In this document: one piece after another, positions 1-47,599 of the stretch | Numbering within the stretch: position 1 is the stretch's first letter | Layout of the letters: each line of letters begins with the position of its first letter | Assembly: GCA_020631075.1 (NCBI GenBank) | Contig: JAHDHX010000005.1 | Location: 1-64,000 of the forward strand | Length of the DNA stretch: 64,000 bases | Direction of reading: 5' to 3' | Source of the DNA: Candidatus Altimarinota bacterium | GTDB lineage: Bacteria; Patescibacteriota; Gracilibacteria; UBA4473 | Notes under the pieces: generated by a model | The model's input: the letters and a program-made list of their open reading frames with translations, nothing else | Database searches by the model: none | What the model was told of the DNA's origin: nothing | Made by a program: the position numbers and the translations under genes

Positions 1-55
1 CTTAAGTCGTAACAAGGTATCCGTACGGGAATGTGCGGATGGATTATCGCCTTTT
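1..55 (+). rRNA. rrs: 16S ribosomal RNA, 3' end (partial)
   Basis: The window opens inside the 3' end of 16S rRNA: the near-universal AAGTCGTAACAAGGTA segment is followed by helix 45, which folds as AUCCGUACG-GGAA-UGUGCGGAU with the GGAA loop methylated by KsgA in other bacteria. After helix 45 the usual GGATCACCTCCTTT reads GGATTATCGCCTTTT, so the anti-Shine-Dalgarno core CCUCC has become UCGCC. The gene starts upstream of the window. The exact mature 3' end is assigned by alignment to E. coli and may differ by a few bases. No 23S, 5S or tRNA gene follows, so this rRNA gene is not in a standard operon on this side. Confidence 0.95.
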
Positions 56-212
56 ACAGAGGCTAATGGGTATCGGAGCAAACCAATTTTTTTTACCGCT
101 CCTAAGACGTATATGAGAGTTTTACGTAAACTCTGGTCTCTCATATGCTAAATTCCCAGGGTCGAATTATACGTTCGAAGTGTCAGAGATTTTTTTGTAC
201 CTGAAAATAAAG
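56..212 (+). other. 16S 3' trailer with hairpins
   Basis: This non-coding stretch follows the 16S rRNA. It holds two inverted repeats: GGAGC/GCTCC at about 75-102 around a T-rich loop, and ATATGAGAG/CTCTCATAT at 111-146, inside which AGAGTTT/AAACTCT can form an alternative hairpin. These are probably processing or folding elements of the precursor rRNA. No tRNA or 23S start is visible. Confidence 0.5.
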
Positions 213-3741: not shown

Positions 3742-3785
3742 GTTATAGTGACACTGACCAAAAAGGCGAGTACCCTCTCCACGAA
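3742..3785. promoter_or_regulatory. Divergent promoter region, lepA / pilin cluster 1
   Basis: On the plus strand GTGACA (3748) is separated by 17 bp from TACCCT (3771), which ends 9 nt before the pilin ATG at 3786; this would give an almost leaderless mRNA. The near-palindromic GTTATAGTGAC supplies TATAAC on the minus strand for lepA, leaving a leader of about 40 nt. Positions are read by eye; no promoter model was run. Confidence 0.45.
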
Positions 3786-4406
3786 ATGCTCCCCCTCCGT
3801 CGCCTCGGCTTCACGATCATAGAGCTGCTGGTGGTCATCACCGTCATCGGCCTTTTGGCGGGGGTCGCAGTCCCCAGTTTTCAGGGGATGATAGAGCAGA
3901 ACGCCCACTCCACCCGCGTGACCGAAGTCTACCAGAGCCTCCTCCTCGCCCGCACCCAGGCCCAGGCCTACGCCCAGTGTGACAACGCTGGCACCTACGT
4001 CCCCGCCAGTCGGTGGGAGTGGGTCTGGCTCGGCGACACCGACGCCGACTCCGCCGACGAATGGCAAATTAACTGCATCATCGACAGCTCTGGTCTTTCC
4101 ACGACCGAGCAAACCAGCACCGACACCGACAACCTCATGGCAGGCCCCACCCCCATCACTGACTTCGACACCACCACCAGCCTCTACACGACCCCCACTC
4201 CCGCCTACGACACCCTCACCGTCAGCTTCCCCGTCGGCGGTCAGGGGCTCAACCTCATCGCCAGCGAATCCATCACCCCCACCACCACCCACACCTCACG
4301 CACCTGCCTCGACCTGTCTTCCACCACCGCTGACCAAACTGTCACCCTCGAGGTCATCGCCGCCAGCGGCCAGATCACCCTCACCTACGACCAAACCTGC
4401 TTGTAA
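3786..4406 (+). CDS. Prepilin, FimT/GspH-like minor pilin
   Basis: The N-terminus (RRLGFTIIELLVVITVIGLL) is a textbook type IV prepilin peptide: basic leader, cleavage after Gly before a methylated Phe, Glu at +5, and a hydrophobic helix. The start is set at ATG 3786, because the longer ORF in the track runs antisense through lepA. The product is 206 aa and its C-terminal part is rich in Thr, Ser and Asp. It would be processed by a prepilin peptidase (not in this window) and assembled as a minor or pseudopilin initiating the pilus. It heads a three-gene set with the PilV- and PilW-like genes, in the same order as in cluster 2 at 57.6-60.8 kb. Confidence 0.85.
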   Translation: MLPLRRLGFTIIELLVVITVIGLLAGVAVPSFQGMIEQNAHSTRVTEVYQSLLLARTQAQAYAQCDNAGTYVPASRWEWVWLGDTDADSADEWQINCIIDSSGLSTTEQTSTDTDNLMAGPTPITDFDTTTSLYTTPTPAYDTLTVSFPVGGQGLNLIASESITPTTTHTSRTCLDLSSTTADQTVTLEVIAASGQITLTYDQTCL

Positions 4407-9781: not shown

Positions 9782-9787
9782 TATACT
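9782..9787 (+). promoter_or_regulatory. -10 box TATACT, leaderless start
   Basis: TATACT ends 8 nt before the ATG at 9796 (5 nt before an in-frame GTG), so transcription would begin at or next to the start codon. Confidence 0.5.
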
Positions 9788-9795
9788 CCTCTGTG

Positions 9796-10476
9796 ATGCT
9801 CCTTCTCTTGCAGTCACTCGGCCTTTCTCTGCTGCTTGCCCTGTGGGTGGCTTTTCCGTGGCACGGTGGCGGGTTACTGTTTTCAGTCACCAGCGCCAGC
9901 CTCGCCGTCAGCCTCATCACGCTCGCCAGTCACCTCATTGCTCACCGCCAGTCTTTGCCTCTCGTCCTTCTGGACAAACTCACCCTCTGGCTCGGCGGCA
10001 CCGCTCTACTCGCGAGCGCCCTCGTGGCCGACCTCCGTCCCTACGTCCTCGGCCAGAGCCTCATCTTCCTCAGCGGCTGGCTATCTCTCCTCGCTTCGCT
10101 ACTCGGCTGGTCGCCCCGCACCCTGCAGCGCCTCGCCACAGCCATGGCCCCCCTCAGCCTTGGCACCATCTTGCTACTCGCCTGGGCCTACCCCCTGTCT
10201 GTCAGCCAACTGCTGCAGTTCAGCGGCTTCGGCACCTTGGCCGTCCTCTTTCTGTCGACCCACCTCCCCCCGCGGCGCTACGCCGCTCTGGCTACTTTGG
10301 GGGGGCTGCTGCTCACCTTGGGGTCTACAGGCGTCTTGCACCAGTCACCCACCCCCTGGGCCGTGTCTGACACCACCGTGCTCACGTGGGCTTTCCTCGT
10401 ACTCAATGCCCTCTTTTGCCTCAGCAGCCTGCGTGATTTCTTCACAACCCCAAAAAAGACCTCCCAGAGCATTTAG
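9796..10476 (+). CDS. Polytopic membrane protein, unknown function
   Basis: The product is 226 aa and almost entirely hydrophobic, with about seven predicted transmembrane helices separated by short loops with Arg/Thr. I do not recognise a family; the layout resembles small integral membrane proteins with repeated two-helix units. The ATG at 9796 is chosen over the GTG at 9778 because the longer version would overlap the -10 box TATACT. It follows the FecR-domain gene by 52 bp and may be functionally linked to it, but the dedicated promoter argues for independent transcription. Confidence 0.65.
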   Translation: MLLLLQSLGLSLLLALWVAFPWHGGGLLFSVTSASLAVSLITLASHLIAHRQSLPLVLLDKLTLWLGGTALLASALVADLRPYVLGQSLIFLSGWLSLLASLLGWSPRTLQRLATAMAPLSLGTILLLAWAYPLSVSQLLQFSGFGTLAVLFLSTHLPPRRYAALATLGGLLLTLGSTGVLHQSPTPWAVSDTTVLTWAFLVLNALFCLSSLRDFFTTPKKTSQSI

Positions 10477-21148: not shown

Positions 21149-21189
21149 CTAGATTTTTATAATTATAAATTTAAAATAATCAAGAAAAA

Positions 21190-22137: not shown

Positions 22138-22544
22138 CCCCACCCCTTTTCGTGCATATCCCCCCGCCCCCTCCTTCCGACTGTCAACCAATTTACTTTC
22201 CCACACCCCTCCTAACCGTTTCCCCCCCTAACTCACATTTTTCTCACCCCCTTCTACTGCGGCTACTGCGACCTTTTGTGCATATTTCCTGCATATCTTT
22301 CCCCTTCCCCATGGTCGTAAGGGGTCTCTCACCTTTCCCACATCCTACTACTACGTACTACTTATTTTTTAAATTTTCAGACATCCATTCACAGACAGGC
22401 AAAACTCAAACCTGCAAAACCCCATCTCTCCTTTTCCCCTTTGTCTCTTTTCTTTCAATTTTTGCCCTCTTCCTGTTTTTTCCCTTTTCCTTTTTCCCCG
22501 CTCTTCGCTAGCCCTTCCGCCCCCTACGCGCTACATTCCGCTTG
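22138..22544 (+). other. Pyrimidine-rich intergenic region before ileS
   Basis: This 400-bp stretch has no convincing ORF on either strand. The plus strand is dominated by C and T (runs such as CCCCTTTGTCTCTTTTC) and includes the octamer GTGCATAT twice, a third copy lying in the end of the rmlD-like gene. No terminator, riboswitch or T-box could be recognised. It is the longest leader region next to an aminoacyl-tRNA synthetase in the window. Confidence 0.5.
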
Positions 22545-25500
22545 ATGTTCCTCCCCTTCGACCCCGCCGTCTCCACCCCCGAGCGTGAGCAAGCCCGCGC
22601 CGCCCACTGGCGCACCCAGTCCACCTTCCACCGCTCCGTCCGCTCTCGCCACCCCCACTCCCCCTTCCACTTCTTTGACGGCCCGCCCTTCGCCACTGGT
22701 CTCCCACACTACGGCCACATCCTCGCTGGCACCATCAAAGACGTCATCCCCCGCTTCCGCACCATGCAGGGCTACCGCGTCGACCGCCAGTTCGGCTGGG
22801 ACTGCCACGGCGTCCCCGTCGAGTACCAAGTCGAAAAAGAACACCAGATCGGCGGCAAACCAGGCATCGAAGCCCTCGGCATCGACACCTTCAACGAACT
22901 CTGCCGCGACATCGTCCTCCGCTGCGCCAGCGACTGGCGCGCCACCGTCGACCGCATGGGTCGCTTCATCGACACCCACGACGACTACAAAACCATGCAA
23001 CCCCAATTCATGGAATCCGTCTGGTGGGTCTTTGGCCAGCTCTGGGCCAAGGGCCTCATCTACGAAGGCTACAAAGTCGTCGCTTACAGCCCCACGCTCG
23101 GCTCCCCCCTGTCCAACTTCGAAGCCAACCTCAACTACGCCGACATCGACGACCCCGCCGTCACGGTCTCCTTCCCCTTCCCCGACGGCACCCACGCCCT
23201 CGCCTGGACCACCACCCCCTGGACCCTCCCCGCCAATGTCGGCCTCGGCTTCGGGCGCGACCTCCCCTACGCCCTGGTTGACCACGACGGCACCCACTAC
23301 TGGGTCGCCCAGGCCGCGGTCGAACGCCTCTTTGGCCCCGACGCCACTATCCTCCGCACCCAGCTCGGTCACCAGTTCCTCGGCCAGCGCTATACCCCCC
23401 TCTTTGACTTCTATGACGACGGCACCGAGCAACGCTTTATCTGCATCCACGACGACGGCGACTACGTCTCCACCGACGCCGGCACGGGTATCGTCCACTT
23501 TGCCCCCACCTTCGGGGCCGAAGACGACGACATCTGCCGCCCCCACAACCTCTACGGCGTCATGCCCATCGACGAGTCTGGTTACTTCAACTCTGACATC
23601 CCCCCCCTCAGCGGGCAGTACTTCCGCCACGACCCCAAAGTCGACGGCTCAAAAGACAATAACGCCAACGCCTGGGTGATTAACACCCTCAAAACCTCAG
23701 GCCGCCTCTTTCGGCGTGAGCAAATCCGCCACAGCTACCCACACTGCTGGCGGACTGACGCCGCCTTGATGTACCGCGCCATCAACACCTGGTACGTCGA
23801 CATCCAAACCCTTAAACCCACCCTGCTCGAGCAAGCCCAAAATATCAACTGGGTCCCCTCCCACCTCAAAGACGGCCGCTTCGGCAAAGGCCTCGAAGGC
23901 GCCCCCGACTGGGCCATCAGCCGCAACCGCTACTGGGGCACCCCCATCCCCATCTGGCGCTGCGACCAGACAGGCCATATCGAGGTCATCACCTCCATCG
24001 CCCAGCTCGAGTCCCGCTGCGGCCAAACCGTCACCGACCTCCACCGCCACTTCATCGACCACCTCACCTGGCCCAGCCCCAGCGGGGGCACCATGCGCCG
24101 CATCCCCGAGGTACTCGACTGCTGGTTTGAGTCAGGCTCCATGCCCTACGCCTCCCAGCACTACCCCTTCCGCTGCCTACAGGGCCTCAAAAACCGCTAC
24201 GTCCTCATCCGCCACGGCCAAGCGACTAATAACACCCAACGCGTCGAAGCCTCCTCCCCCACCACCCAGGCCCAGCACCCGTTGACCGAGCTCGGGTTCG
24301 AGCAAGCCCAGACATTGGTTGACCAGGGATTTACCGCCGACATCATCGTCAGCTCCCCCTACCTCCGCACGCACCAGACCGCCACCGTGCTCAGCCAAGA
24401 CGGCCGCATCCCGCTCACCACCGACGACCGTCTGGTTGAGATTGATTCTGGCCAGCTCGACGGCCAGTCCTACGACGTCGTCAAGGCCCACATCGCCCAG
24501 CACTCCATCGTCAGCCAGCCCTTCCCCGACGGCGAATCCATCCAGCAGTGCCAGCGCCGTGTCACGGCCGTCATCCACGACCTCGAATCCCAGCACGAAG
24601 GCAAAACCATCGCCATCGTCTCCCACGCCACCCCCCTACATTGTATTATTGATTGGTACAACGACACCCCCACCAAGTGGTGGGGCAGCGACCTCATTGA
24701 CAATTGTACCCCCATTGACCTCCGCCAAAACCCCTACCGCGACTTCCCCGCCGCCGACTTCATCGCCGAAGGCCTCGACCAAACTCGCTGCTGGTTCTAC
24801 AACCTCCACGTCCTCGGCTGCGCCCTCTTCGGCAAAAACATCTACAAAAACGTCATCACCAACGGCATCGTCTTGGCGGCCGACGGGGCCAAGATGTCCA
24901 AATCCAAACAAAACTACCCCGACCCCAACGACATCTTCGCCCAATACGGCGCCGACGCCGTGCGACTCTACCTCCTCAGTTCCCCCGTCGTCCGTGGTGA
25001 GAATTTCCGCTTCGCCGAGTCAGGCGTACAGGAAGTCTTAAAATCCATCCTCCTCCCGCTGCAAAACGCCTACAAATTCTTCAGCACCTACGCCAATATC
25101 GACGGCTGGTCCCCCCACTCGCTTACCGTCGTGCGCCACGGCGAGGCCCAGCACAACGTCGCTGGCATCTACAGCGGACTGACAGACACCCCGCACGAGC
25201 TCACCGACGAGGGCATCGCCCAGGTCAAAGCCACCGCGCAGCAGCTCCGTACCCCCGACCTCATCATCGCCTCCCCGCTGGTGCGCACCCGACAGACCGC
25301 CCAGCTTCTGGCGGATGAGCTAAAATACAGCGGCGAAATCATCTTTGACGACCGCCTCCGCGAAGCCGACTTCGGCGACCTCGAAGGCCAACCCTATATG
25401 CAGTACCGCGAACGCCTCGCCCACCCCACGGCCGAGCGCCCCGAGTCCATCGCTGCTCGCACCGCCGACTTCTACCACAGCCTGGCCGTTGACTACCCCG

Positions 25501-26699
25501 ACCGTGACATCCTCGTCGTTGGCCACGGCGACACCGTCCGCGGGGTCAAGGTCGCCCACTACCGCTTGTACGACTTCTACCGCGTATCTCTCACCGCCAC
25601 GGGCCAGCACACCGTGCTCTACCCCGCTCCACCCGCCTCGGCCAACCCCCTCGACCAGTGGATCCTCTCCGCGCTCGAGTCCCTCACCTTGCACGTCACC
25701 ACCCAGCTGGAGTCTTACCAGCTCGACACCGCCCTCAAACCCCTCGCCGCCTTCATCGACGACCTGACTAACTGGTACATCCGCCGCTCCCGCCGTCGGT
25801 TCTGGGCCCACGGACTCAACCCCGACAAAGTCTCCGCCTACCAGACCCTCCACCACGTGCTTTACCGCCTCACGCACCTGCTGGCGCCATTTGCACCCTT
25901 CTTGTCGGACGACCTCTTTCTCCGTCTCGGCGGGCACGACTCCGTCCACCTGCAGATGTTCCCCGTCGCCGACCAGTCACGGGTCAACCCCTTGCTTGAA
26001 CAGCGCGTCTCCCTCATGCGGGAGGTCGTCGGCCTCGCCGCAGGCATCCGTGCCCGCGCGGGCGTGCGCTTGCGCCAGCCACTCCCATTGTTGCAGTTCG
26101 CCCTCACCCAGCCGCTTGACCTCGACCTCGACGTCATCGCCGCCGAAGCCAACGTCAAAGACATCCAAGTCCTCGACTCAGTCGACGGCCTCGCGACCGA
26201 GATCGTCAAAGTCAACGCCAAAAAAGTCGGCAAAAAGTTCGGCAAAAAAACCCAAACCCTCATTCAGGCTGGCAAGTCAGGCGACTTCACCCGCCACCCC
26301 GACGGCACGCTCACCATTGCGGGCGAAACCATCATGCCCGATGAGTACGACCGCGCCTTTCTCACCGCTGAAGGGGTCGAAGCCGCCTCCACCCACCGCC
26401 TCATCGTCCTGCTTGACACCACCCTCACCCCCGCGCTCGAGCGTGAAGGCCTCGCGCGTGACTTCATCCGCACCGTGCAGGACCTCCGCAAGTCCAGCCA
26501 CTTCGCCGTCGAGGACCACATCACTCTCCACTGCCACACCACCGACGACACCCTCACCCAGATGTTATCTGAGCAGTCCGCCCTCATCCAGTCCGAAACC
26601 CTCGCCGACCAGCTCACCATCCTCAGTGATCCCCCCGCAGACGCCCACACCGTCACTTTGGCCGAGGGAATTATTTCATTGTCGGTTTCTCAGGTTTAA
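22545..26699 (+). CDS. ileS: Isoleucine--tRNA ligase with two histidine-phosphatase inserts
   Basis: This 1384-residue product is several hundred residues longer than normal IleRS. The synthetase parts are complete: PHYGHILAG (HIGH motif) near residue 54, the CP1 editing domain with WTTTPWTLPAN and GTGIVHFAPTFG, the core ESGSMPYAS, KMSKS near 783, and an anticodon-binding region. A first insert (about 547-730) has RHG (556-558), SSPYLRTHQTA, EIDSGQLDG and SHATP. A second (about 858-1030) has RHG (864-866), SPLVRTRQTA, EADFGDLEG and GHGDTV. Both keep the catalytic histidine-phosphatase residues, so both could be active. The first lies within the catalytic Rossmann core, the second between core and anticodon domain. 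A zinc finger at the C-terminus is absent. ATG 22545 is preferred over the TTG in the track. Confidence 0.95.
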   Translation: MFLPFDPAVSTPEREQARAAHWRTQSTFHRSVRSRHPHSPFHFFDGPPFATGLPHYGHILAGTIKDVIPRFRTMQGYRVDRQFGWDCHGVPVEYQVEKEHQIGGKPGIEALGIDTFNELCRDIVLRCASDWRATVDRMGRFIDTHDDYKTMQPQFMESVWWVFGQLWAKGLIYEGYKVVAYSPTLGSPLSNFEANLNYADIDDPAVTVSFPFPDGTHALAWTTTPWTLPANVGLGFGRDLPYALVDHDGTHYWVAQAAVERLFGPDATILRTQLGHQFLGQRYTPLFDFYDDGTEQRFICIHDDGDYVSTDAGTGIVHFAPTFGAEDDDICRPHNLYGVMPIDESGYFNSDIPPLSGQYFRHDPKVDGSKDNNANAWVINTLKTSGRLFRREQIRHSYPHCWRTDAALMYRAINTWYVDIQTLKPTLLEQAQNINWVPSHLKDGRFGKGLEGAPDWAISRNRYWGTPIPIWRCDQTGHIEVITSIAQLESRCGQTVTDLHRHFIDHLTWPSPSGGTMRRIPEVLDCWFESGSMPYASQHYPFRCLQGLKNRYVLIRHGQATNNTQRVEASSPTTQAQHPLTELGFEQAQTLVDQGFTADIIVSSPYLRTHQTATVLSQDGRIPLTTDDRLVEIDSGQLDGQSYDVVKAHIAQHSIVSQPFPDGESIQQCQRRVTAVIHDLESQHEGKTIAIVSHATPLHCIIDWYNDTPTKWWGSDLIDNCTPIDLRQNPYRDFPAADFIAEGLDQTRCWFYNLHVLGCALFGKNIYKNVITNGIVLAADGAKMSKSKQNYPDPNDIFAQYGADAVRLYLLSSPVVRGENFRFAESGVQEVLKSILLPLQNAYKFFSTYANIDGWSPHSLTVVRHGEAQHNVAGIYSGLTDTPHELTDEGIAQVKATAQQLRTPDLIIASPLVRTRQTAQLLADELKYSGEIIFDDRLREADFGDLEGQPYMQYRERLAHPTAERPESIAARTADFYHSLAVDYPDRDILVVGHGDTVRGVKVAHYRLYDFYRVSLTATGQHTVLYPAPPASANPLDQWILSALESLTLHVTTQLESYQLDTALKPLAAFIDDLTNWYIRRSRRRFWAHGLNPDKVSAYQTLHHVLYRLTHLLAPFAPFLSDDLFLRLGGHDSVHLQMFPVADQSRVNPLLEQRVSLMREVVGLAAGIRARAGVRLRQPLPLLQFALTQPLDLDLDVIAAEANVKDIQVLDSVDGLATEIVKVNAKKVGKKFGKKTQTLIQAGKSGDFTRHPDGTLTIAGETIMPDEYDRAFLTAEGVEAASTHRLIVLLDTTLTPALEREGLARDFIRTVQDLRKSSHFAVEDHITLHCHTTDDTLTQMLSEQSALIQSETLADQLTILSDPPADAHTVTLAEGIISLSVSQV

Positions 26700-26766
26700 T
26701 CTACAAAATACTTTTAATTTAAACAGCAATGCAATAGGATAAATATTGAAAAATATTTTCCAAATC

Positions 26767-34691: not shown

Positions 34692-34697
34692 TACACT
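34692..34697 (+). promoter_or_regulatory. -10 box TACACT, leaderless start
   Basis: TACACT ends 7 nt before the ATG at 34705, placing the transcript start at or next to the start codon. Confidence 0.5.
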
Positions 34698-34704
34698 CCC
34701 CACA

Positions 34705-35928
34705 ATGAAAACCATCGTCCTCGCCTCAGGCACCAGCAGCCGCATGGCCCCCCTCACAGACAAGATGTCCATCCCCTTCTTGGGCCAGACAATCTTCGCC
34801 CACCTACTGGGCAAAGCCCACCAAGGCGGCGCCAGCCACTTCCTTGTCGTGGGCAACCCCGACAATGAGGCCGACCTCCGCACCCAGCTCGACGCCCTGC
34901 CCTATTCCTACGACTTCACGCTCCAGACCGACCACCACAACGGCCAAGCAGGCGGCGTCCTCGCAGGCCTCTCATTGCTCACCACCGACGAGCCCGTCCT
35001 CATCATGTCAGGCGCCAACGACTACGTCACCGCCGCCGCCTACGCCGAAGTCATCCAAACCATTACCCAAGGGGCCGACGGCGCTCTTCTGGCCAAGCGC
35101 ATGACCGACTACTTCCCGGGTGGCTACCTGTCACTGCACGCAGGCACCCAGCAGGTGCAGTCAATCATCGAAAAGCCCCCCAAAGGCCAGCAACCCTCCG
35201 ACTTGGTCAATATCGTCTGCCACGCCTTCGCCAGCAGCCAGCAGCTGCAGCAGGCCCTCACCGCCGCCGCCAGCTCCGCCGACGACCACTACGAGGTCGC
35301 CCTTCAGCACCTGTGTGACACCACCACCGTGCAGGCCGTCCCCTACGCTGACCACTGGCAACCACTGAAGTACCCCTGGCACGTCCTCGACATGACCCAC
35401 CTCATGCTCAGCCAGCTCCCCGACGGCCAGACCATCGACCCCACCGCCACCGTGGCCGAAACCGCTCGCCTGCGGGGCCAGGTCGTCATCGCCCCTGGGG
35501 CCAAAGTCTTCGACTACGCCACCATCGTCGGCCCCGCCTACATCGGCGCGGAGGCCATCGTCGGCAACGGCGCCCTCGTGCGGGCGTCCATCATCGGCGC
35601 ACGGTCAGTCGTCGGGTATAATACCGAAATCGCCCGCTCCCACCTCGCCCCCGACGTCACCACCCATCTGGCCTACGTCGGCGACAGCGTGGTGGCCAGC
35701 GGCGTCAACTTTGGCGCCTACAGCACCACCGCCAACCTGCGGCTCGACCACGCCCCCGTCAAATTCACCGTCAAAGGCCAACGGCTCAGCACTGGCCGCC
35801 AGAAGTTCGGTGCCATCGTCGGCACAGGCGCCCAGATCGGCGTCCACGCCTGCCTCATGCCAGGCACTCGGGTTGAGGCTGGCCAGCTCGTGCCCCCCAG
35901 CAGCGTGTTTCCACCTCCTCGTTCTTAA
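34705..35928 (+). CDS. Sugar-phosphate nucleotidyltransferase with hexapeptide C-terminus
   Basis: The product is 407 aa. The N-terminal half is an NTP-transferase: LASGTSSRMAPLTDKMSIPF (cf. GxGTRMxPLT...K), with a product-binding SGANDYV and IIEKPPK. The C-terminal part (about 240-400) is a left-handed beta-helix of hexapeptide repeats (IGAEAIVGNGALVRASIIGA). This is the layout of GlmU-like or glucose-1-phosphate thymidylyltransferase-like enzymes. The exact sugar is not clear, and SPR in the active-site helix is non-canonical. It may feed rmlD or cell-wall precursor synthesis. Confidence 0.8.
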   Translation: MKTIVLASGTSSRMAPLTDKMSIPFLGQTIFAHLLGKAHQGGASHFLVVGNPDNEADLRTQLDALPYSYDFTLQTDHHNGQAGGVLAGLSLLTTDEPVLIMSGANDYVTAAAYAEVIQTITQGADGALLAKRMTDYFPGGYLSLHAGTQQVQSIIEKPPKGQQPSDLVNIVCHAFASSQQLQQALTAAASSADDHYEVALQHLCDTTTVQAVPYADHWQPLKYPWHVLDMTHLMLSQLPDGQTIDPTATVAETARLRGQVVIAPGAKVFDYATIVGPAYIGAEAIVGNGALVRASIIGARSVVGYNTEIARSHLAPDVTTHLAYVGDSVVASGVNFGAYSTTANLRLDHAPVKFTVKGQRLSTGRQKFGAIVGTGAQIGVHACLMPGTRVEAGQLVPPSSVFPPPRS

Positions 35929-38479: not shown

Positions 38480-38485
38480 TATAAT
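38480..38485 (+). promoter_or_regulatory. TATAAT, leaderless start of VirB2-like gene
   Basis: A perfect TATAAT is followed by six bases (ACCCAG) and then the ATG at 38492, so the +1 base would be the A of the start codon. TTCACC lies 18 bp upstream as a weak -35 box. This is the clearest leaderless promoter in the window. Confidence 0.7.
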
Positions 38486-38491
38486 ACCCAG

Positions 38492-40162
38492 ATGCCCTTC
38501 TCTCTGCGCTCCCGCTTGCTTGGTGCTCTCAGCTGCCTGTTGGTGGTGGGCGGGGTGTGGGGCGGTGGGGCCAGCGCCCAGCTCACCTTCCGCGAGATCG
38601 AAGTCAACACCAGACAGATCACCCAGCAGATCAACGGCCTCAAGGCCGACATGCAGCGCTCCCGACACTACGACTACCGCGTCAACTACCTCAACGTCAT
38701 TTCCGAGCGCTCCACCGCTCAGTGTCAGCAACTCTGGGCCGTCCAGCGCCAAATCATTGAGCGGCTCACTGACCAGTCCGCCAACCGCGACCCACGGGTA
38801 AATGTTGCCCGCGAAAGGCTCAACACCCTCATGGGCAACCAAGCCATCACCGATTTCACTCGCCCCCTCACCGCTCAGCAAATCCTCCAGCTGCAAGAAA
38901 CAATCAGCAACGGTGTCTACCGCGTCGACCAGTTCATCGACCTCTACGACCGCGACCAGCTCAGAGACATCTCCGAGCAAGCCAACTCCGCCACCACCAT
39001 CTCCGTCGACAACGTCCGCATCACCCCCGACGGCTTCTCCACCTTCGGTGTCTGCCCCCAGACCACCACCACCGACATGGTTAATGACCCCACTTGTCGC
39101 GGTCTATTGACCAGCCCCCTGTCCGACTCCCAAACCGAAAAACTAGCCAATAACGACTACCACGTCATCCGCACCTGCACCGCCAGCGCTTCGTTGACCA
39201 CCACTGGCCGCCAGATTTTGGACCTCCTCTTCCCCCCCGACCAAAAAACCCTCATCTCCGTCCGGCCCGAAGACCGCACCCCCACCGACCGCACCGACCA
39301 GCAATATTCCCCCGAAAACACCGTCCTTCCGCTCGGTGACACAGGGTGGGACACCATCCTCACCGACAACATCATCATCCGCCGCATCGTCGGGTCCCAG
39401 ACCCAAGACCTCCTCACCCGACAAGGCATCTTCATCCCCTCCCTGATTGACTCCATTAATGTCATCGTCGGCGCCTTCGGCATCCTCTTTTTGCTGATCA
39501 CCGCCATCCAGATGACCCTCAACCAGGGCGACCCCGAGAAGCAAAAACAATACCGCCTCAACCTCGTCTGGATTTTCGTTGGCCTCGGGGTCGTGTCCGT
39601 GGCCGAGTTCGCCGCCTTTGACATCCTCAACCCAGAGAAAAACCCCTTCCGCTCCAGCACCTCCATCGTCTACCTACGGCTGCTGGCTCTGCGGGTGCTG
39701 GGCTTCATCCGCTACATCGCCATCGCCGCTATCTTGATCATGGGCCTCATCACGGGCTACCAGCTCATCACCACCCCCGACGAAGAAAACGCCCTCAAAC
39801 AAGAATTCCTCTTCCTCCAGTCAGTCGCCTACGGCGCCGTGTTCATCGTCGGGGCGGAGGTCTTTGTGGCCATCTTGTCTATGACGGGCCTCGACCCGTC
39901 TGACAACCCCACCGCCATCGCAAATGCAGGCGATCGGCTGGTGGCGGGCGCCGCCACCCAGATCGCAGGCTTCATTCGGCTTATCTTGTCCCTCGCCATC
40001 ACTATTGGTGTGGTGGTGCTCATCTGGGCCGCGCTCTACTACCTCACATCCTTGGGCCGTGACGAATCCATGAACAAAGCCAAATCCCTCATCATCTCCA
40101 CCGTCATCGGCCTCATCGTGGCCGTGTCCAGCTACACACTCGTCACCTACTTCGTCGTCTGA
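38492..40162 (+). CDS. Secreted membrane protein with three VirB2/TrbC-like modules (1)
   Basis: The 556-aa product starts with a signal peptide ending in GGGASAQ. About 290 residues of extracellular helical sequence follow, then six transmembrane helices arranged as three two-helix modules. Each module is hydrophobic helix, a short charged loop (QGDPEKQKQY; TPDEENALKQ; GRDESMNKAK) and another helix, the layout of VirB2/TrbC-type pilins in CPR genomes. The third module, with YYLTSLGRDESMNKAKSLI, is the closest. Its TGA stop overlaps the ATG of the next gene by one base, so they are coupled. Role in secretion, DNA transfer or a channel is inference. Confidence 0.72.
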   Translation: MPFSLRSRLLGALSCLLVVGGVWGGGASAQLTFREIEVNTRQITQQINGLKADMQRSRHYDYRVNYLNVISERSTAQCQQLWAVQRQIIERLTDQSANRDPRVNVARERLNTLMGNQAITDFTRPLTAQQILQLQETISNGVYRVDQFIDLYDRDQLRDISEQANSATTISVDNVRITPDGFSTFGVCPQTTTTDMVNDPTCRGLLTSPLSDSQTEKLANNDYHVIRTCTASASLTTTGRQILDLLFPPDQKTLISVRPEDRTPTDRTDQQYSPENTVLPLGDTGWDTILTDNIIIRRIVGSQTQDLLTRQGIFIPSLIDSINVIVGAFGILFLLITAIQMTLNQGDPEKQKQYRLNLVWIFVGLGVVSVAEFAAFDILNPEKNPFRSSTSIVYLRLLALRVLGFIRYIAIAAILIMGLITGYQLITTPDEENALKQEFLFLQSVAYGAVFIVGAEVFVAILSMTGLDPSDNPTAIANAGDRLVAGAATQIAGFIRLILSLAITIGVVVLIWAALYYLTSLGRDESMNKAKSLIISTVIGLIVAVSSYTLVTYFVV

Positions 40163-41373
40163 TGCTCTCACCCTGCCCCCCGTCACACTTTCTTCGCCGC
40201 ATCGCTCACGCGCTTGGGGGCCTGTGCGGGCTTTTCCTAGTGGCCACCGCCACCGCGCAGGTGCTCCCCTCCGACACGTCCGACCTCTACCCCCACGACT
40301 ACACCGACAGCGAGCTCGGCCAAGAAACAGACGACTTCTTCCAGCTGCCCGACTTCACCGTCTCGCGCTCGGGCACACCCCGCATCCCGCAGGGCGACCA
40401 AGCTCTCGCCGACGCCTTCACCGCCCTGATGCAAGACAAAGGCTACCAAGACGACCAAACCATCTACGCCATCTACCAAGCCTACGACCTCGACGGCAGC
40501 CAGAGCCTCAGCATCACCGAGAAACGCGCCATCCTCACCACCGAATACGCCGCCCTGCGCGACCTCACAGGCGACAAAGGTTCTTTCCAGATCCGCTACA
40601 TCCTCGAAAAACTCTTTTCCATTATCAAGTGGGCCATGATCCCCGTCGTGCTCATCTTTGTGGCGGTCGCAGGGCTGGAGCTCTTCTTCAACACCTCCGA
40701 CGAAGAACTCTACGGCAAAAAAATCCGCCAGCTCCTCGGCATCGGTGAAGGCTTTTTCATCTTCGCCGTGGCCGTCATTTTGGTTGACACCATTGCCTTC
40801 GGGCAACGGGGCGAAATCCTCCGCCCCTACCTCGGCGGGGCCGCCTCCACTGACTGGTTCGGGCAAAACCTCACCATCCAGACCCTCGCCGCCTTTAATC
40901 TCCTCTCAACCCTCGTCATCATTGTCGCCGTCCTGATGTTGATCATCGCCGCCATCCAGCTCATGCTCCGCGGTGAGGACGAAGCTAGCCGCGGCAAACT
41001 CGTCAGCCGCATCACCGCGTCGGTCGTCGGCATCGTCACGGTTTCGCTCACCCAGTCCCTCGCCTGGGCTCTGTCCAGCCGCGGGTTCAATGCGCAAGAC
41101 AACACCGGCACCGGCCAGCTCATCCGCTCATTCGGCGACGCCGAAACCTTCCGCCTCCTGCAAATCCTCTCTGGCTGGACCAATTTCATCCTTGGTTTTA
41201 TGGGCGTGCTCGCCGTCATCTCGCTCATCTACGGCGGTTTCCGCCTCATCGCCTTCTTCGGGGACGAAACCGCCACCACCGAAGCCAAAAACATCGTCAT
41301 CTCCGCCGTCATCGCCCTCATGTTGGTGCTATCTGCTTACACCATCGTCAACTACTTTGCCTTAGCTGTATAA
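40162..41373 (+). CDS. Secreted membrane protein with three VirB2/TrbC-like modules (2), EF-hand
   Basis: The 403-aa product has its own signal peptide (FLVATATAQ) and again three two-helix modules with DEELYGKKIRQ, GEDEASRGKLVS and GDETATTEAKN loops. The N-terminal outer part carries an EF-hand loop, DLDGSQSLSITE (residues 109-120), with all the oxygen ligands in place and a final Glu. It is a paralogue in layout, but not in sequence, of the gene before it, and is translated by coupling to it. The last module, IYGGFRLIAFFGDETATTEA, is the most canonical. Confidence 0.72.
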   Translation: MLSPCPPSHFLRRIAHALGGLCGLFLVATATAQVLPSDTSDLYPHDYTDSELGQETDDFFQLPDFTVSRSGTPRIPQGDQALADAFTALMQDKGYQDDQTIYAIYQAYDLDGSQSLSITEKRAILTTEYAALRDLTGDKGSFQIRYILEKLFSIIKWAMIPVVLIFVAVAGLELFFNTSDEELYGKKIRQLLGIGEGFFIFAVAVILVDTIAFGQRGEILRPYLGGAASTDWFGQNLTIQTLAAFNLLSTLVIIVAVLMLIIAAIQLMLRGEDEASRGKLVSRITASVVGIVTVSLTQSLAWALSSRGFNAQDNTGTGQLIRSFGDAETFRLLQILSGWTNFILGFMGVLAVISLIYGGFRLIAFFGDETATTEAKNIVISAVIALMLVLSAYTIVNYFALAV

Positions 41374-41393
41374 ATGTGTATTAAATAGTCTTG

Positions 41394-44117: not shown

Positions 44118-44130
44118 CTTTGGATGTTAT

Positions 44131-46755: not shown

Positions 46756-46782
46756 CCCACTATTTTACCTCATTTTTGGCTC

Positions 46783-47532
46783 TCACCACAAGCCCCATTT
46801 CCAAAAATATTGCCCCGCTGACCGCACATGCCACCAAAACGTCCGCTTGCGCACCGCGTCCCATATCCCCCGACCAGACAACCGCTCTCGCCCGTGGCGC
46901 GCCACTATCTGCGGGGCATACACACGGTCTATGCCTCGCTCCGCCGCCCGACGGCACAGGTCCGTGTCCTCCAAAAACAAGAAAAACCGCTCGTCAAACC
47001 CCCCCAGCTCGTCCCACACCGTCCGCCCCATCCCCCAGAAGCTCCCCTGCGTCCACGCCACCCGCGTTTCTTGCGTCGGCATGGCGGTCCGCCCCCGCCC
47101 CAGGCGCCGCCCCAGCAACCCCCAGGGCGTCGGCCAGCGACGGACAGTCTCCAGCACGTTTCCGTCACTGTCTTGCAGCTGTGGGCTCGTTATCTGCCGC
47201 TTGTGCCAGTGTTTCCCCAGCCCTGCAAATGTGCCCTCTAGCACCTCCGTGTCTGGGTTCAGCAGGCATAGGGCACTGCCCAGCGCGTGCCGCACCCCGA
47301 GGTTATTGGCCGCCCCAAACCCGACATTTTCCGCCAGCGGGATGATATGCACTGGCAGCCCGTCCGTCACCCGTCGCATTTCGGCCAGCGCCTCACCGCC
47401 AGAGTTATTATCCACGATCACCCACTCCCACGGTTCAGCGGGCGGATGTGCCCGCAGGCTGGCCGCCAGCCGCTCCAGCACCACCTGCGAGTGGTGCGTC
47501 ACCGTCACGCAGCTGAGCACCAGTTTCTTCAC
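46783..47532 (-). CDS. Glycosyltransferase family 2
   Basis: The 249-aa product has the GT2 GT-A fold: KLVLSCVTVTHHS at the start, VIVDNNS, LNPDTEV, and GGFDERFFLFLEDTDL near the end. It resembles rhamnosyltransferase-type enzymes and probably adds sugars to surface polysaccharide. I prefer GTG 47532: TACACT ends 7 nt before it, and the protein then begins at the first beta-strand. The ATG at 47601 (ORF track) would overlap the ATG of prs on the other strand within CATG. Confidence 0.82.
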   Translation of the reverse strand: MKKLVLSCVTVTHHSQVVLERLAASLRAHPPAEPWEWVIVDNNSGGEALAEMRRVTDGLPVHIIPLAENVGFGAANNLGVRHALGSALCLLNPDTEVLEGTFAGLGKHWHKRQITSPQLQDSDGNVLETVRRWPTPWGLLGRRLGRGRTAMPTQETRVAWTQGSFWGMGRTVWDELGGFDERFFLFLEDTDLCRRAAERGIDRVYAPQIVARHGRERLSGRGIWDAVRKRTFWWHVRSAGQYFWKWGLW

Positions 47533-47599
47533 ACCCTCGAGTGTACAAACTCTCCGCCCTCTGTCAGACTGTTTCTGATTTTCCTTTTTGCCCCGCTTC

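What the first reader, a model, noticed from the sequence alone, without database searches (positions are those of the whole stretch)
9782..9798. Many start codons sit 6-9 nt after a -10 box (leaderless mRNAs)
The clearest cases are TATAAT-N6-ATG (38480), TATACT-N8-ATG (9782), TACACT-N7-ATG (34692), TACACT-N7-GTG (47532), TACCCT-N9-ATG (3771), TATAAA-N7-ATG (21148, minus), TAACAT-N6-ATG (44117, minus) and TAAATA-N6-ATG (41394). This spacing puts the transcript start at or beside the start codon. It fits the altered anti-SD.
Basis: partly seen in the sequence, partly recalled or inferred. Interest (0 to 1): 0.72.

Follow-up and report, generated by a model that had tools for sequence, protein, structure and literature searches.

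The report
Leaderless genes in an SD-less Patescibacterium
In this tiny uncultured bacterium, whose ribosomal RNA has lost the usual tag for finding messenger starts, roughly one gene in eight carries its promoter so close to the start codon that the message must begin at, or within about three bases of, the first codon.

Summary
All eight sites exist. In 379 gene starts from 42% of this genome, called without promoter or RBS information, TANNNT lies 6-9 nt before the start in 70 genes against 25 expected (P = 8e-15). The window alone is borderline (8 of 51 against 4.0, P = 0.04). An unbiased motif scan ranks TANNNT at 6-9 nt first in five relatives and second here. Aligning on the hexamer reveals a -35 element (TTGaCa, spacer 16-18), so these are sigma-70 promoters, and the transcript starts 0-3 nt before the start codon. 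A glycosyltransferase gene keeps the arrangement in 12 of 16 distant homologues. DnaJ, HrcA and a nucleotidyltransferase have domains that fix the start next to the box. The excess suggests about 12% of genes here and about 20% in relatives: a minority. The anti-SD is altered (GGATTATCGCC, window 41-51) and no SD, canonical or variant, is detectable. SD is also absent in relatives that keep CCTCC, so SD loss probably came first; the leaderless signal is stronger where CCTCC is lost. Most genes have C-rich, G-poor leaders. No RNA data exist, so leaderless transcription is inferred. Leaderless genes are a known kind; their use with anti-SD-less bacterial ribosomes is less expected.

The parts
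9782..9787 (+). -10 box TATACT (preceded by TGG, extended -10), 8 nt before ATG
9796..10476 (+). leaderless-candidate gene, 226 aa, no Pfam match; start chosen by coding score alone agrees
38480..38485 (+). -10 box TATAAT, 6 nt before ATG of the T4SS-pilin-like gene 38492-40162
34692..34697 (+). -10 box TACACT, 7 nt before ATG of nucleotidyltransferase gene 34705-35928; the domain begins at residue 2, so the start cannot lie downstream
47540..47545 (-). -10 box TACACT, 7 nt before GTG (47532) of glycosyltransferase 46783-47532
47562..47567 (-). -35 box CTGACA, spacer 16, of the same promoter
3771..3776 (+). -10 box TACCCT, 9 nt before ATG of prepilin gene 3786-4406 (N_methyl motif from residue 5)
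44124..44129 (-). -10 box TAACAT, 6 nt before ATG 44117
21156..21161 (-). TATAAA, 7 nt before ATG 21148 of a methyltransferase gene; not TANNNT, weaker case
41382..41387 (+). TAAATA, 6 nt before ATG 41394; not TANNNT and the ORF is not supported as coding: doubtful
22532..22537 (+). further case: TACATT, 7 nt before ATG 22545 of IleRS
26754..26759 (+). further case: TATTTT, 7 nt before ATG 26767
46762..46767 (-). further case: TAAAAT, 6 nt before ATG 46755
6..63 (+). 3' end of 16S rRNA gene plus the first precursor bases (rest of the gene lost at a contig break); too short for Rfam
41..51 (+). altered anti-SD GGATTATCGCC (canonical GGATCACCTCC)
49..63 (+). hairpin GCCT..AGGC that covers the anti-SD position in the precursor; stem kept by compensatory changes in relatives

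Best explanation
A subset of genes (excess about 12% of all genes here, about 20% in relatives of the same and a neighbouring family) is transcribed from ordinary sigma-70-type promoters whose -10 box ends 6-9 nt before the start codon. Their mRNAs therefore begin at the start codon or within about 3 nt of it. These leaderless messages are read by ribosomes whose 16S tail has lost CCUCC, in a lineage that no longer uses SD pairing. The remaining genes have leaders without SD that are C-rich, G-poor and weakly structured. Shown by sequence statistics: the -10 placement, the -35 partner, the absence of SD and of a matching variant SD, and the altered 16S tail. Inferred: the transcription start, and 70S or 30S-fMet-tRNA recognition of a 5'-terminal start codon.
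For: TANNNT at gap 6-9: 70 observed vs 25.1 of 379, P=8e-15; all five other genomes of the family show 2.4-3.2x. Unbiased 3-letter motif scan: TANNNT at gap 6-9 is first of about 11,000 tests in the other five f1 genomes (98 vs 35, P=2e-18) and in f5, and second here. Aligning on these hexamers exposes a -35 TTGaCa at spacer 17 (T50 T43 G41 A24 C46 %) and extended -10 TG 13/70 vs 1/62 at distant TANNNT; 31/70 have at least 4 of 6 TTGACA matches vs 11.3 shuffled, P=3e-8. Cross-validated promoter scan peaks at gap 6-9 (own 5 vs 1.0, other f1 12 vs 0.8, f5 9 vs 0) with a separate broad leadered class at 21-60. Start anchored by domains: DnaJ (J domain from residue 4, TTGACA-16-TAGATT-8-ATG), HrcA (residue 5), ArsP permease (6), nucleotidyltransferase (2), GT2 (7). 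GT2 homologues at 36-47% identity: TANNNT at 6-9 in 12 of 16, mostly TAAACT/TACACT. SD 4-mers 5% vs 6% control here, 54% vs 2% in E. coli with the same caller. No variant SD complementary to the altered tail. ATG in 65 of 70 motif genes.
Against: No RNA 5' ends exist for this organism. The fraction is modest, and the window alone is only marginal (P=0.04). The start calls come from a home-made coding-only caller with some wrong starts (for example LepA). Families with canonical CCTCC show a weaker enrichment of the same kind (first genes 73 vs 50), so the feature is not exclusive to altered anti-SD. Some operon-internal genes also carry the motif. Individual hexamers may be chance: about one in three motif genes is expected from background. 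The cross-validated promoter scan has few strong hits in this genome (5 at gap 6-9).
Confidence: 0.85

Rival explanations
1. TANNNT near starts is a translation signal (an AT-rich, non-SD ribosome binding element as in Bacteroidota) and not a promoter.
For: It also occurs before some operon-internal genes (9 vs 2.3 after removing stop codons). Canonical-anti-SD families show a TAA-centred element about 10 nt upstream.
Against: A translation element would not need a TTGaCa box 16-18 bp upstream, which appears only by aligning on the hexamer, nor extended -10 TG. In the GT2 homologues the -35/-10 pair recurs as a unit.
Confidence: 0.08
2. Start-codon miscalls: the true starts lie further downstream, so these are ordinary short leaders.
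For: Start calls are computational and a few are wrong.
Against: Domains begin within 2-9 residues of the called start for DnaJ, HrcA, ArsP, fumarase-type lyase, nucleotidyltransferase, GT2 and prepilin. Homologues start at the same place. Letting other in-frame starts in does not raise the excess (8.5% vs about 12%).
Confidence: 0.04
3. Chance: TANNNT is a loose pattern in leaders of biased composition.
For: The window alone gives P=0.04.
Against: Sharp peak at 6-9 only, P=8e-15 here and repeated in independent genomes; dinucleotide shuffles give a third of the count.
Confidence: 0.02
4. Loss of the anti-SD drove genes to become leaderless (cause), as against SD disuse coming first and the anti-SD drifting later.
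For: Ratio of observed to expected in first genes is 2.1-6.7 in 12 genomes of families f1, f5 and f20 (CCTCC lost in those with a known tail, except G084) and 0.7-2.1 in 8 genomes with CCTCC.
Against: SD is absent in CCTCC-bearing relatives too, including a member of the same family that keeps CCTCC (G084). Families are not independent samples and GC differs.
Confidence: 0.2

Closest known systems
TA-led (leaderless) bacterial genes, Zheng et al. 2011 (PMC3160421), e.g. Deinococcus radiodurans, Actinobacteria
   Same: TANNNT about 12 bp upstream of the start, read as a -10 box that puts the transcript start at the start codon; coexists with leadered genes; fraction of similar size to Actinobacteria (about 20%).
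   Different: Those bacteria keep CCUCC and SD-led genes (D. radiodurans MP1 32% SD vs 7% control). Here SD is undetectable and the 16S tail has lost CCUCC. The Patescibacteria are not in the groups listed in the passages read.
SD-scarce organisms lacking CCUCC (class iv) of the 2024 PLoS One survey (PMC10783764), including Ca. Peribacter riflensis and SR1
   Same: Altered 16S tail, no SD and no compensating variant SD; Patescibacteria already included.
   Different: In the passages read, that work reports no -10-adjacent starts for these organisms; here a leaderless promoter class is supported statistically in such a lineage.
GeneMarkS-2 group of bacteria with leaderless transcription (described in PMC9581028)
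   Same: Genomes in which up to about 40% of transcripts are predicted leaderless from promoter patterns near the start.
   Different: Here the second class of genes has no detectable RBS motif but a C-rich, G-poor leader.

Membership tests
TA-led leaderless bacterial genes (PMC3160421) | TANNNT about 10-12 bp upstream of the start, above dinucleotide shuffles | tested here: met
TA-led leaderless bacterial genes (PMC3160421) | The TA signal is a real -10 box (partner -35 at 16-18 bp) | tested here: met
TA-led leaderless bacterial genes (PMC3160421) | No SD upstream of these genes | tested here: met
   (no SD in the genome sample as a whole)
TA-led leaderless bacterial genes (PMC3160421) | mRNA 5' end at the start codon | not testable with these tools
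   no transcript data
SD-scarce organisms lacking CCUCC (PMC10783764 class iv) | 16S tail without CCUCC | tested here: met
   GGATTATCGCC
SD-scarce organisms lacking CCUCC (PMC10783764 class iv) | No pairing of the tail with gene upstream regions | tested here: met
   2.4% vs 4.6% control by 5-mer match; thermodynamic test of the paper not run
Bacteroidota-type AT-rich non-SD RBS | AT-rich element before most starts without a promoter partner | tested here: not met
   top signals are CCC and TANNNT with a -35 partner

The most novel reading that the evidence does not exclude
A bacterial lineage has abandoned SD pairing altogether. Its ribosomes start either on leaderless messages or on C-rich unstructured leaders, while the former anti-SD survives only as one arm of a pre-16S hairpin that evolves by compensatory changes. 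The anti-SD position would thus be kept for rRNA processing and no longer for mRNA recognition.
Probability: 0.4. Interest if true: 0.72.

Novelty: new variant of a known kind. Interest (0 to 1): 0.55.

Why it matters
Leaderless initiation in bacteria has been studied in organisms that also use SD. A lineage with leaderless genes and no anti-SD gives a natural test of what a bacterial ribosome needs to find a start codon. It also affects annotation: gene finders tuned to SD are likely to misplace starts in this part of the Patescibacteria. The order of events (SD disuse first, anti-SD erosion later) can be tested on the many genomes of this class.

Tried and rejected
EM motif finding with a simple background only found homopolymers and was replaced by the positional scan. 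Rfam gathering search missed the 16S end because only about 60 nt are present; it was found by pattern. A pattern scan of named genomes gave 34 hits, of which only the Gracilibacteria/Patescibacteria-type ones (L083, L087, L088, L090, L093, L095, L096, L099, L103) are taken as real; by my estimate about 30 chance matches are expected, so the Planctomycete and other hits were discarded. The idea that 3771 is false (inside LepA) was rejected after the prepilin motif was found. Stop-codon TA of upstream genes as the cause of the signal was tested and removed; the enrichment stays. Code-25 relatives (f14, f22; upstream GC 21-24%) were uninformative.

Full report
WHAT WAS CHECKED. The eight sites are in the sequence. 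Six match TANNNT; TATAAA (21148 gene) and TAAATA (41394 gene) do not, and the 41394 ORF is doubtful. Six of the starts were reproduced by coding-only start calling that knows nothing of TANNNT (9796, 38492, 34705, and on the minus strand 44117, 47532 and 21148).

IS IT MORE THAN CHANCE. The window alone is thin: 8 of 51 starts against 4.0 (P=0.04). The genome sample (609 kb of 1.46 Mb, 379 starts) is clear: 70 starts have TANNNT at gap 6-9 against 25.1 at other distances, P=8e-15; in shuffles 76 against 26.1 for gap 5-9. An unbiased scan of three-letter spaced motifs at all distances gives TANNNT at 6-9 as the top signal in the other five genomes of the family and in family f5, and the second here, after CCC. 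The E. coli control run with the same caller shows SD and no such peak; Deinococcus radiodurans MP1, from a known leaderless user, shows both.

PROMOTER OR TRANSLATION SIGNAL. Aligning on the hexamer shows a -35 box, TTGaCa, at a 17 bp spacer, that was not used to select the sites; 31 of 70 have four or more matches against 11.3 in shuffles. Extended -10 TG is found in 13 of 70 against 1 of 62 for TANNNT further away. A promoter model trained on other genomes finds a sharp class at gap 6-9 and a separate leadered class at 21-60 nt. So the hexamers behave as -10 boxes. The -10 box ends 6-9 nt before the start, so by the usual 6-7 nt to the transcript start (general knowledge of sigma-70 promoters) the leader is 0-3 nt.

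START CODONS ARE PINNED. In DnaJ (TTGACA-16-TAGATT-8-ATG) the J domain begins at residue 4; HrcA at 5; ArsP permease at 6; a lyase at 9; the window's nucleotidyltransferase at 2 and glycosyltransferase at 7. For the glycosyltransferase, 12 of 16 homologues at 36-47% identity have TANNNT at 6-9 nt, most often TAAACT or TACACT, several with a TTGCCA/TTGCGA-like box 16 bp upstream. For the nucleotidyltransferase 9 of 19 do.

HOW MANY. The excess is about 12% of genes here, 19% in other f1 genomes, 21% in f5. 'Many' is fair, 'most' is not. Genes without the motif have C-rich, G-poor leaders, and structure around starts is weak. A protein with several S1 domains is encoded; bS21 was not detected.

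THE ANTI-SD. The window begins with the last bases of the 16S gene: GGATTATCGCC where GGATCACCTCC is usual. In 288 genomes of the class the tail varies by family: f1 mostly CCGCC/TCGCC, f5 CTCC/TTCC variants, several families canonical. SD is undetectable in all those sampled, canonical or not, and no variant SD matches the altered tail. The leaderless signal is stronger where CCTCC is lost (observed/expected 2.1-6.7 against 0.7-2.1; families are not independent, and G084 of f1 keeps CCTCC). The simplest order is: SD use lost early in the class, anti-SD drifting later. In many families the tail still forms a hairpin with the sequence just downstream (GCCU/AGGC, CUCC/GGAG, UUCC/GGAA), with changes on both sides. 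This suggests that the segment is kept for precursor folding.

WHAT IS KNOWN. TA-led leaderless genes are an established bacterial class (PMC3160421). Patescibacteria without CCUCC and without SD, including Ca. Peribacter riflensis, are listed in PMC10783764. No paper found joins the two for Patescibacteria (open-licence papers only).

IDENTITY.

Noticed in passing
window 22545-26699 (+): IleRS of 1384 aa with a strong histidine-phosphatase match (PF00300, 215 bits, two stretches, best 554-723) lying within the synthetase core region: an apparent inserted domain.
   Followed up: no
window 41-63 and 16S tails of relatives: The anti-SD position forms a hairpin with the downstream precursor sequence; the stem is kept by compensatory changes while CCTCC is lost. 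The hairpin is absent in code-25 families f14 and f22, in the one f10 tail folded, and in f3 (G008).
   Followed up: partly
upstream of genes without TANNNT, whole genome sample: C-rich, G-poor leaders (CCC 131 vs 56 at gap 6-9); relatives of low GC have A-rich ones. Probably selection for unstructured leaders.
   Followed up: partly
families f3, f18, f26 (L064-L070, L120-L129): Relatives with intact CCTCC also lack SD and have a TAA-centred element about 10 nt upstream of starts.
   Followed up: no
window 38492-41373 (+): Two neighbouring genes with T4SS pilin domains (PF18895, several stretches each).
   Followed up: no
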